Positions 16,398-20,349 of a DNA stretch of 64,000 nucleotides are shown piece after piece (position 1 is the first letter of the stretch; each line of letters begins with the position of its first letter). Both the position numbers and the translations under genes were made by a program. The stretch spans positions 530,262-594,261 of the forward strand of contig NC_026739.1 of assembly GCF_000210295.1 (NCBI RefSeq), in the 5' to 3' direction. Under the pieces are notes generated by a model. That model did not search any database. It worked only from the letters and a program-made list of their open reading frames with translations, and was not told the origin of the DNA. This stretch comes from Trypanosoma brucei gambiense DAL972 (Eukaryota > Euglenozoa > Kinetoplastea > Trypanosomatida > Trypanosomatidae).

Positions 16398-17530
16398 ATG
16401 GAATTTGTTTGTAAAAAGGGGCTGACGCCTTTTTCTTTCGACTTTCGACCAGCACTGAACCCGAGAACTGCATGCCACGCGGATGATATGTTGACAACCG
16501 ATGTTGAAAACCCTAATAGTGTTTACTTTGACGGAGAACGTAAAATGGATCTGGGATCGCTGAGGCAATTGATGGTAAGTTTTGTGTTGCCTAGAAACTC
16601 AGATTTCTTAAAAGCTTTTTTAAGTGGCGGGAGAAGCACTGCATGCGAAATGGGCAACTTTAGAAGCCACAGAATCAGCACTTTATTATCGGTTCGAAAG
16701 TGCATGTGCACAACTCTCCGACGAGAATGTTCGGGTGCAGCACTAATCAAATGAGCATCTGGGCTGGATGCAACAACAGCTCACATATATGCAAGAAACA
16801 AAAGCACAGCAAGCAGCGGAAATTGGAGGTCTACGTACAATCGATTTCTACGATACGGCAAAAATTGGTCATAACTGAAGGTAAGAGAGATAACACAGGG
16901 GAGTGTCAGGAACAACAGAGCAAATCGGAAACAGGGAAGGCCAAACATATAGATGAATGTGCATGGAAAGGCTGTTTCCCATCGTAAGAAGTAACTTAAC
17001 CTTTTTCACATAGGGTTTGATTTCGAGGGATCCAGGAATTACGGGCAAATGCATTGGGCTTTCCTGAAGGAGTAAGTACTGAAGAAAAAATTCGAACTTT
17101 TGATGGAATGATGAAATATCTCTAAGGAAGGACTCCTGAATAACTCTTATCAGCATATCAGTTCGTGTTTCCCACACCAACAATATCGCCGGGACAGGTA
17201 TATACCGAGGCATAAAAAAACTTCGCATCATAGGTATTGCGCCTGCACCAAGACGGCATATCGAAGGAACGCCTCCAACTAGGAAAACAATTGTATGATA
17301 AGCTGTGCACAGTACAAACGGTAAAAGACTACCCGGGGCTGAGGTTTAAAGACATGAAGGAAGCTATCAAATTCTCATTTCAAAAAGGGTGATATTTACA
17401 TTCAGGCCGCTCTAAAAGCGAAACGACAACAACAACAACAACAACAACAACAAAACAGGGTTCCTCCGAGCAGGGCTCGATGTTTCACATGCGACTGATT
17501 GGGGCATTACAGCAACACTTGTGGGGTGTT
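16398..17530 (+). pseudogene. Gag-like ORF1 remnant with CCHC zinc knuckle
   Basis: An open stretch from the ATG at 16398 runs to 16754, and coding-like segments continue in other frames. At 17482-17523 one frame reads C-F-T-C, four positions, H, four positions, C, that is CX2CX4HX4C, with one TGA (17497-17499) inside. This is the retroviral-type zinc knuckle found in nucleocapsid-like proteins of retroelements. A (CAA)n repeat lies 30 bases upstream. The protein upstream of the knuckle is not recognisable by eye. Confidence 0.65.
17424..17455. repeat. (CAA)n repeat inside the gag remnant
   Basis: About ten CAA units on the + strand, reading as poly-Thr or poly-Gln/Asn depending on frame. 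Confidence 0.85.
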
Positions 17531-17651
17531 CAAACATAAACTGAACACACGTCAAAAAAGAGACATTCGGCCCCAGAAGCAATGAATTTGGGGGCCGTTA
17601 ATATTTCCCTACCCATACTCCACCACAAGGGAAAAACTAACACAACGGAGA

Positions 17652-18692
17652 ATGAGTCATACAGTGGAGAACGACAACAATTACCACTCCTCGTCGACAA
17701 ATGACTTACCCGACAGGGATGGGGATAGTACGGCCCTTACGCGCAGAAAAGTCGACAGCAGCTCAACGTATGAGAGGAGCCTTTCAAGGGATCTGGGAAA
17801 TGTCAAATGGAAATCAACAACATGCAACAAAGGTGTTCTTGGTAAACGACGTCACGGTTATTCTAGCTTCTACACACAATCCGTGTATTATTGCAATGGC
17901 TTCAGAAGCAAACTAATTAGCAAAAAGGATGTGGACACGCACAACATGAGAACAGAAAGGGTCCATAATCCGAAAGTTCTATGCGTTTGCAGACAAACAC
18001 GGACTACCGGCTGTCGAAACGACAATCCCCTTGTTTATTGTAAGTTTGCAACTGGCAAAGAGCAGCGCCATACAGTACACAAGGACACTACTATCATTAC
18101 TAGCCGCAGAGCATACACCAGCGCGAATGTATTTGTAGCCGGACTATGCAGAATGACAGGGGGAAATACCATAAAACAGGTTCGTCCCATGTTGCGTTGG
18201 GAGCTCGATCTCGTATGCGACACTTTAACACTGGAGCGGGATCGAGTAGCTTTAAGACTATCCTGAATCACAGCCAGCAGATGGTGAGAAATAGCACAGC
18301 TACAAAAGGAGAATTTTGTGCCCCATCCACAAGACAAAAAAAGAAGATGCCATAGTGGTGAACTGAGGAGCACTCCCAAAGACATTCAAAAGCGACACAC
18401 ACAGAACCGCGAAGTATGTGGTGTTAAGCGGAGAAAATGCAGGAAGGATCCGAAGGGTAATCAGGGAAATGGAGGGTAGTGAAAAGCTCACAGCCATTAC
18501 AACGAAGGGAATGGAGACAATACTAAGCCCATTCGGGGTGACTGCACATTCAATAAAGAGAGGGGCTTTGGCACACCCAGAGTTGGCATTAGTGGCGTAA
18601 AAACACACGCCCTCGATTCAATATTATTAACACAATTGGGAAAGCACACAAACCCTCAGGAGCTTCCTCGAAGCACGGTAGGACGCTATCTG
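17652..18692 (+). pseudogene. Tyrosine recombinase ORF2 remnant
   Basis: The frame starting at 17652 is open to the TGA at 18264-18266. Read through that stop it gives TASRW-stop-EIAQL, matching the first-arginine box T-x-x-R-W-G-E-I-x-x-L, with the Arg codon at 18279-18281 and a second TGA where Gly is expected (18285-18287). The second box THSIKRGAL-like segment (A-H-S-I-K-R-G from 18544) is in frame +1 relative to this. The final region LGKHTNPQELPRSTVGRYL, with the presumed nucleophile Tyr at 18684-18686, returns to the original frame. At least two frameshifts and three stops inactivate it. In the second box Lys rather than Arg lies three residues after His, with Arg next to it. Confidence 0.75.
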
Positions 18693-19039
18693 TGTCTATG
18701 GACTGCCACCATCAACAAGTCGGAGTTGTTAACCACGTTGATGTAAAACATCTGATAGGGAGCAAAGCAGATATGCCATGCAATATGCCGGAACCCTCAT
18801 GCCGAGCAGTGCTAGCTTTATTGACAAGAAAAAATTATCGAGGGCACATCATCATTCGACGTTCGCAAGGAACGCGGGCAGTGCCAGAGGAAGAAGAGAG
18901 ACATTACTTCTTCAGAAAGTAAATGTGGGTACATTATCTTTGGAATTGGTACGAAGACGAATGAAGGATGAGGCACAGCAACGGTTTGACAATGTATGGA
19001 ACTTGATGATTGCCACGGAACGAAATTCGAAAGAAAGAG

Positions 19040-20349
19040 ACAGGGAGTCTCATTTGCGGATTGCGGAAAAAGACGCCGATTTATTGCCTGGTCCAAGGTA
19101 AAAAATGCCAGAAATGATTACGAGGTTGGAGTCCTGTTGGGACACATATCCCTATATCTAAGTGCAGTTTATGATGAATCCGCAGGGTTGTTTGATTTAA
19201 AGGCTTCTTTTTTTCCGGATGAACAAGCCACAAAAGACATTCGAGCGAGTTTCCGCTGTTGCACAGAAAAGTGGGGAACTGGTAGAATTGAATCGATTTC
19301 CAATGGGTTAATAAATGAAGCCATGAAATTGTACAGACATCACGAGAGTTTTGGCAGGAGACTCAGAGGTAGTGAAACCACAATATGCGGGCGCCAACGA
19401 ATCGAGGGTTCACACGTAGATCGATAACATCCGTATCAGTAGACCACACAAAACGGTCAAAGAATGGGGGGACCACATTGCTAAAAACATGAAAGAATGC
19501 GGGGCAACGGTTGCCGAGCAACAAAAAATAGTCACACGATACGAATTTATCGGGTTTTTATTTGAGCATGACAAACAGACGGTTTTGTTGAATGCAAAGA
19601 TGATGCGGCGGATTCGAGAATTAGCTCCACTCGAGATAGCGACCATAAAACAGATGGAGAGAGTTGTATTCTGCATGGTATATGCGGCTGGGATTGGGGG
19701 GGGGGAGCCACTTTTCTCTTACTATATTTTATTTAAAATGATGCGTCGGCGTTTATCTCTCCTAAATAGGGGTTTGGTGAACCATTCCGATCGGGATTAG
19801 CTGCCAAAAAATGCATTAAAGTTGGCGAAGCAGTGGATGAGCACGTTGTTGAAAAATGTAGCAGTGGTTCCACCACAGGTTCAGCCCTCCACGGCCACAC
19901 TGGTAACGGATGCCTCCGTGCAGGGATGGGGAAGGATGTTATTTCGAGATAAAGAAGAGATCTTAATAGCAGAAGGGTCCTGGGAAACGGCACCTTACAT
20001 GATAGCACAAGGTAAAGCAGGAGTGATTCAACTCACCCTGTTAGCGTTGCACGGCTGTTTTGAGGGATCATTGCAAATATACGTGGATAACACCACCGTA
20101 ATGCATATTATGAAGGAAGACGACGCGCATTCAAGCGCCCTAGTGCGATAGGCATCTGTAAAAAACAGGATATTACGACAGGAACAGATAAATTCCACAT
20201 GGTGTTACGTACATTCAGGGGTAAATCCAACCGATGGGATGTCTCGAGGGATACCTGTCAGGGGACAGGACTTGGCGATGGGGTGGAACATGTGGAGGAG
20301 AGCGCGGGAGGAGGTTTTAAAGACGCTTTCAGCTCTTTCATATCGTTAG
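19040..20349 (+). pseudogene. Reverse transcriptase and RNase H ORF3 remnant
   Basis: The start of the RT is in the frame of 18996-19427 (GLFDLKASFFP, then ASFRCCTEKWG). From 19282 the coding frame switches and stays the same to the TAG at 20347-20349. It contains VELNRFPMG (19282-19308), IDNIRIS (19420-19440) as the YxDD-box counterpart, the thumb-like stretch TRYEFIGFLFEHDKQTVLL, and RNase H with LVTDASVQGWG and IYVDNTTVMHIM. Stops occur at 19309, 19312 and several later points including 19798 and 20149. The glutamate expected in the RNase H helix (AQGKAGVIQL) appears replaced. It is plainly non-functional. Confidence 0.8.

What the first reader, a model, noticed from the sequence alone, without database searches (positions are those of the whole stretch)
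16398..20349. Dead VIPER-type retroelement with gag, tyrosine recombinase and RT/RNase H remnants in order
Four kilobases of broken frames keep the marks of a tyrosine-recombinase retroelement: CCHC knuckle, recombinase R, HSIKRG and Y boxes, RT PMG and IDN motifs, RNase H DAS and VDN motifs. Such elements integrate through a recombinase rather than a DDE integrase and are rare outside DIRS, Ngaro and the kinetoplastid VIPER/TATE group. The frame changes can be dated by comparing copies.
Basis: partly seen in the sequence, partly recalled or inferred. Interest (0 to 1): 0.75.

Follow-up and report, generated by a model that had tools for sequence, protein, structure and literature searches.

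The report
Dead VIPER retroelement, partly gene-converted
This is a decayed copy of VIPER, a jumping element already known in African sleeping-sickness trypanosomes; the small new point is that its dead copies on different chromosomes seem to have overwritten stretches of one another.

Summary
Window 16178-20479 (contig C6 of a genome that one search identifies as Trypanosoma brucei gambiense DAL972) is a broken VIPER-type element in the order gag/CCHC, recombinase, RT, RNase H; all motifs named are present. Its RT/RNase H part is 51% identical over 94% to a T. theileri protein, whose model, though poor, matches RT plus RNase H folds. The recombinase rests on motifs and gene order: Pfam's integrase model found nothing; a profile comparison was weak but correctly placed. 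Four near-full copies represent three loci, since C5 and C11 share a segmental duplication; there are seven short SIRE-like elements and older relics. No split direct repeats were found. VIPER and SIRE in T. brucei are already in print. Less expected: exact-identity patches of 124-377 bp between copies averaging 84% identity. One tract (142 bp, C6 = C11, C5 84%) most simply postdates the duplication. Dead copies were thus probably gene-converted between chromosomes, which confounds dating by shared lesions.

The parts
16178..20479 (+). Decayed VIPER-type element, border to border
   Evidence: Borders from alignment of 4 full copies and 7 short A-B composites; BLAST matches to C11 and C5 end close to the same places
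16178..16295 (+). 5' terminal block A, shared with SIRE-like short elements
16398..17582 (+). Gag-like remnant in several frames; zinc knuckle at 17481-17522 broken by a stop
   Evidence: zf-CCHC E 0.0032 in the C11 copy, below Pfam's cut-off, 0.27 in the window copy
17950..18705 (+). Tyrosine-recombinase remnant: core-binding part 17950-18135, R box 18267-18284, HSIK box 18547-18564, Y box 18681-18701
   Evidence: profile comparison; PF00589 no match
17856..18232 (+). Patch exactly identical to the C5 copy over 377 bp; 17962-18149 identical in all four copies
   Evidence: alignment printed
18904..19797 (+). Reverse transcriptase remnant (motif A FDLKASFF, PMG, IDN motif C, FIG), with about 100 bp absent at 19068-19076 relative to the other three copies
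   Evidence: homology
19801..20346 (+). RNase H remnant (TDAS, VDN, NPTD)
   Evidence: fold of the relative P0005
20203..20344 (+). 142-bp tract 100% identical to the C11 copy, 84% to that copy's segmental duplicate on C5
20302..20479 (+). 3' terminal block B, shared with SIRE-like short elements

Best explanation
The stretch is a dead insertion of VIPER, the kinetoplastid tyrosine-recombinase retrotransposon. In life (inferred from the family) its RNA would be copied by the RT/RNase H and the DNA joined to the chromosome by the recombinase, without a DDE integrase. It lies between + strand genes, in the sense direction, beside a T-run. Since insertion it has decayed by stops, frame changes and a deletion of about 100 bp. 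Independently of transposition, homologous exchange with VIPER copies on contigs C5, C8 and C11 has overwritten patches of it or of them (gene conversion). Shown: anatomy, copies, borders, RT/RNase H homology, patchwork identity. Inferred: the transposition mechanism, that the exchange was gene conversion after insertion (best supported for one tract that differs between the C5 and C11 duplicates), and the direction of each exchange.
For: Motifs in order. RT/RNase H relatives: T. theileri P0005 51% over 94%, E 1.5e-84; P0006; T. grayi P0007. P0006 passes Pfam RVT_3 above cut-off; P0005 hits RVT_1 at 1.1e-5, below cut-off. The model of P0005 matches RT plus RNase H chains in that domain order. 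A recombinase alignment matches phage integrases at their catalytic-arginine box, P 0.0073 and 0.0096 with a second alignment, against 0.16 for the RT control. The R box is intact in the C2 relic and the HSIK box is in the C2 and second C11 relics. Patchwork in the 3' block: longest exact runs C6-C5 377 bp, C6-C11 294 and 158 bp, C6-C8 219, 162 and 124 bp, where the longest run in 1000 shuffles was 76, 80 and 92. Agreeing runs at polymorphic sites: 0 of 2000 shuffles for C6-C11, C6-C5 and C6-C8. The 142-bp tract is 100% C6=C11 and 84% to C5, though C11 and C5 are duplicates of one insertion.
Against: No integrase profile recognises the recombinase pieces, and PF00589 finds nothing in the genome at E <= 10. 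The hhalign probability is only 4-5%. The HxxR box has K in the R position, and in the second C11 relic the R of the R box is itself a stop. No T. cruzi VIPER reference was at hand. In the 5' block (about 16176-16650) the exchange test gave little: 29, 164 and 193 of 2000 shuffles for the three pairs with C6. Shuffles treat sites as independent. The C11/C5 duplicates differ unevenly outside the element too, up to 15% in a 250-bp bin of the left flank, so local divergence of C5 alone is not proof of exchange; the weight lies on the exact C6=C11 match. The P0005 model has mean pLDDT 51.9.
Confidence: 0.87

Rival explanations
1. The mosaic arose before insertion: source elements recombined (template switching between co-packaged RNAs), so the copies were patchworks from birth and no gene conversion followed.
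For: Fits the patches shared by C6, C8 and the C5/C11 ancestor, e.g. 17962-18149 identical in all four.
Against: Does not simply explain the 142-bp tract identical in C6 and C11 but 84% in C5, since C11 and C5 are duplicates of one insertion; it would need unusually fast change of C5 there. A frame break in the recombinase is common to all four copies inside the shared patch, so the patch was already dead in its source.
Confidence: 0.11
2. Assembly artefact: reads of different copies were merged, making identical patches.
For: The assembly is an eight-fold capillary draft built with Phrap and ordered against T. brucei 927 (PMC2854126, passages).
Against: Capillary reads of several hundred bases (recalled) would span the patches, and the copies differ by about 16% on average over the 3' block. 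The paper says regions with repeats were manually inspected. No reads were available to me.
Confidence: 0.07
3. The 17856-18232 patch is conserved because it is functional (protein or RNA) rather than converted.
For: An alternative frame of 226/228/228 aa is open across it in C6, C11 and C5, and of 196 aa in C8.
Against: 17962-18149 is identical in all four, thus at every codon position; the recombinase frame is broken inside it; no Rfam match at E <= 1 and an unremarkable fold, z -0.97; other patches lie elsewhere.
Confidence: 0.04
4. The element is an LTR or LINE remnant, not a tyrosine-recombinase one.
For: Integrase Pfam model silent; the best solved folds for the RT are foamy-virus and Ty3 RTs, though the PDB may hold no DIRS-type RT (not checked). 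Long LINE proteins were not candidates.
Against: No long direct repeats around it; recombinase boxes between gag and RT in all four copies and before an RT-type N-terminus in the second C11 relic; VIPER is reported in T. brucei.
Confidence: 0.03

Closest known systems
VIPER (Lorenzi et al. 2006, cited in PMC6681497 and PMC6390901; the 2006 paper itself was not held)
   Same: Gag-like with CCHC, tyrosine recombinase, RT/RNase H in order; reported in T. brucei, considered extinct for lack of functional copies, and low in copy there (passages)
   Different: No split direct repeats detected here; PMC6681497 describes them for 7 of 15 T. cruzi Dm28c copies and 3 of 15 C. fasciculata copies (section read)
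SIRE, the short VIPER derivative
   Same: The seven short elements have the VIPER 5' end, about 30 bp of their own and the VIPER 3' end, as PMC6681497 describes SIRE. A table in PMC2696322 lists SIRE for T. brucei (passage)
   Different: About 340 bp here against about 435 bp by the parts given for T. cruzi; the spacer letters were not compared with T. cruzi
TATE, Ngaro, PAT and DIRS elements
   Same: Recombinase plus RT/RNase H plan (from PMC6681497)
   Different: No split or inverted terminal repeats found here; no sequence of these families was compared

Membership tests
VIPER | Gag-like region with CCHC knuckle | tested here: met
   17481-17522, broken by a stop in the window copy; C11 copy zf-CCHC E 0.0032, 17.9 bits against a cut-off of 20.8, so a weak match
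VIPER | Tyrosine recombinase | tested here: inconclusive
   R, HxxK and Y boxes in place; PF00589 no match; hhalign P 0.0073, probability 5%
VIPER | Reverse transcriptase followed by RNase H | tested here: met
   T. theileri and T. grayi proteins E 1.5e-84 to 2.4e-80, not labelled VIPER by their sources; Pfam on them; fold
VIPER | Order gag, recombinase, RT/RNase H | tested here: met
   recombinase then RT-type N-terminus also in relic L063
VIPER | Sequence similarity to T. cruzi VIPER | not testable with these tools
   No T. cruzi VIPER sequence or kinetoplastid genome collection at hand; the T. grayi hit is named TcC31.12
Complete SDR-bearing VIPER/TATE/Ngaro form | A1 at 5' end, B1-A2-B2 at 3' end | tested here: not met
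   BLAST at E <= 1e-3 finds no second A block after B in 4 of 4 full copies, over 4.4-5.9 kb of 3' flank for C11, C5 and C8 and the rest of the window for C6
SIRE (the seven short elements) | VIPER 5' end, own spacer, VIPER 3' end | tested here: met
   7 of 7 short loci carry both ends; one (C4:935955) is cut short at its 3' end
LTR retrotransposon | Long terminal direct repeats | tested here: not met
   The repeat finder over 14500-22000 shows direct repeats of 16-25 nt only
LINE (ingi/SLACS) | RT closest to LINE RTs, APE or RLE endonuclease | tested here: inconclusive
   No LINE among the 8 hits, but long proteins were outside the length limits; endonuclease not searched separately

The most novel reading that the evidence does not exclude
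In T. brucei the VIPER unit is A-genes-B with no split direct repeats, and SIRE (A-spacer-B) uses the very same two borders, so both could be units moved by the recombinase at the same ends; the A1-genes-B1-A2-B2 form of T. cruzi would then be a VIPER joined to a SIRE. After death the copies have kept exchanging sequence between chromosomes by gene conversion, spreading lesions.
Probability: 0.15. Interest if true: 0.5.

Novelty: already known. Interest (0 to 1): 0.27.

Why it matters
It confirms a known fossil family at this locus. The useful point is a caution and a tool: divergence-based dating of such relics is distorted by exchange between copies, and the C5/C11 duplication offers a way to place an exchange after both copies existed. 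Shared borders of VIPER and SIRE bear on where SIRE came from and whether it moved, which PMC6681497 leaves open.

Tried and rejected
Centromere link: PMC1868937 (passages) ties degenerate retroelements to centromeres, but places the chromosome 6 array between Tb927.6.180 and .190, which by gene number is near one end and not at this locus (inference; it also takes C6 to be chromosome 6). Tandem arrays in the window are short, at most 70 bp, and none was found in the four fetched loci scanned (L020, L027, L029, L031). Rejected for this copy. Functional RNA in the identical patch: no Rfam match, ordinary fold. Pfam on window pieces gave nothing that counts. The protein search with the window's RNase H piece alone had no hit; the phage collection none; PDB sequence searches none or chance-level hits. 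In one search the C8 copy was misaligned at about 17129-17560, where it has a large deletion, so I use for it. The structure model is of low confidence (mean pLDDT 51.9); only the domain order is used. Paper searches: TbSIRE/TbVIPER/TvVIPER found none; VIPER with gene conversion gave 11 papers, 10 listed, none whose title or abstract start concerns exchange between VIPER copies (not read for this point, and most subscription journals are not held).

Full report
Setting. The window is C6:530262-594261 of a 22.15 Mb, 11-contig genome. A protein matching a piece of its C11 copy at 100% is recorded as T. b. gambiense DAL972 on a contig of 4,531,609 bases, the length of C11. That contig numbers equal chromosome numbers is an assumption. 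The element lies between a gene for an RRM protein (10512-12785) and a 309-aa reading frame (20670-21599), both on the + strand.

Observation. The RT motif C reads IDN; in the relatives that cover it, it is WIDN: the C11 copy, T. theileri, T. grayi, Diplonema and three proteins without organism name. So the N at the usual second D (xxDD, recalled) is a feature of the lineage and not decay. The recombinase H box is HSIK in C6, C11 and C8 and HSMK in C5, and HSIK in the relics on C11 and C2, with K where the standard HxxR (recalled) has R.

Copies. DNA searches found three further near-full copies and a 67% gag fragment at C5:1176466-1176917. The C11 and C5 copies lie in a segmental duplication of about 8.4 kb at 95.6%, so there are three independent insertions. 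The C8 copy lacks about 0.9 kb inside gag. Protein searches found older relics: C2 about 636.1-638.1 kb, C5 170.0-171.9 kb (minus), C6 1172.9-1174.9 kb, C11 3017.7 kb, and weaker matches on C9, C5 and C8. One search lists 14 matches: 7 short elements with both ends, and 7 rows that are ends of the full copies. Of the seven short ones, the C7 pair is identical over 371 bp, and the C11 and C8-end ones are 95.8% alike with some flank, so at least five insertions.

Borders. Aligning 4 full and 7 short copies shows a 5' start at GAAA after a mostly T-rich stretch and a 3' end at or near ACTATT, common to full and short copies except C4:935955, which has lost its 3' end. No second A block follows B in any of the four full copies. 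TT stands at both borders in 7 of 11 copies (counted), which would fit insertion at a TT core, but in T-rich flanks this is weak.

Recombinase. Pfam, PHROGs and PDB sequence searches gave no integrase, and PF00589 had no match in the genome while ringing in 14 of 14 control genomes. Aligned with seven phage integrases, a three-sequence VIPER alignment matched only at the arginine box (TASRWGEIASL over TGQRVGDLCEM of lambda Int), P 0.0073, probability 5.3%; a four-sequence version gave P 0.0096, probability 4.3%; the RT alignment as control gave P 0.16. PMC6681497 itself reports only E about 0.1 for this domain in T. cruzi (passage).

Lesions and exchange. A stop before ITASRW and a frame step between the core-binding part and FVAGLC are in all four copies; at that step both older relics run on in one frame. 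A stop inside the R box is private to the window copy among the four. The shared lesions lie in or beside a patch of near identity. In the 3' block (17570-20490, 580 polymorphic gapless columns) C6 agrees with C11 over 34 successive sites at 20203-20344, with C5 over 16 at 17937-18218 and with C8 over 25 at 18566-18681; 0 of 2000 shuffles reached each. The other pairs there gave 0 (C11-C5), 0 (C11-C8) and 5 (C5-C8) of 2000. In the 5' block (151 columns) the pairs with C6 gave 29, 164 and 193, C11-C5 7, C11-C8 1401 and C5-C8 729 of 2000 (all). The tract at 20203-20344 is 142 of 142 identical in C11 and 84% in C5. C11 and C5 differ by 6.2% and 2.7% in the left and right flanks of the duplication (112 of 1797 and 59 of 2221), but unevenly, up to 15% in a 250-bp bin of the left flank. 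The simplest reading is that at least one exchange followed the duplication; its direction is not settled.

Literature. VIPER in T. brucei is reported (PMC6681497, sections 5 and 6 and passages; PMC6390901, passages), with 76 T. brucei copies counted in PMC12278014 (passage). SIRE is listed for T. brucei in a table of PMC2696322 (passage). Lorenzi et al. 2006 was not held. Neither element is new.

Verdict. An ordinary member of a known family, well enough preserved to show its plan, with a modest new observation about exchange between dead copies.

Noticed in passing
C4:1239571-1239921, C4:935955-936269, C7:1942796-1943166, C7:1945120-1945490(-), C8:700378-700722, C8:2225143-2225486, C11:1099468-1099808 (loci L018-L024): Seven short SIRE-like composites: VIPER 5' end, about 30 bp of their own, VIPER 3' end.
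   Followed up: partly
C11:1105327-1113801 and C5:38231-46674: Segmental duplication of about 8.4 kb at 95.6% carrying one VIPER copy; its divergence is patchy (0 to 15% per 250 bp).
   Followed up: partly
   Followed up: partly
L063 (C11:3016801-3018800), L064 (C2:635701-636700): Older VIPER relics with more open recombinase frames and the same HSIK box; in L063 the R of the R box is a stop.
   Followed up: partly
P0002: A T. b. brucei 927 protein joining RT and RNase H in one frame; its best match among the four copies is 79% over 209 aa (83% over a 78-aa piece), so probably not orthologous to any of them.
   Followed up: partly
window 9142-10101, 22301-23740, 30634-31953: Neighbouring genes: DREV methyltransferase, an actin-like protein (below Pfam's cut-off), and an Hsp33-domain protein.
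   Followed up: no
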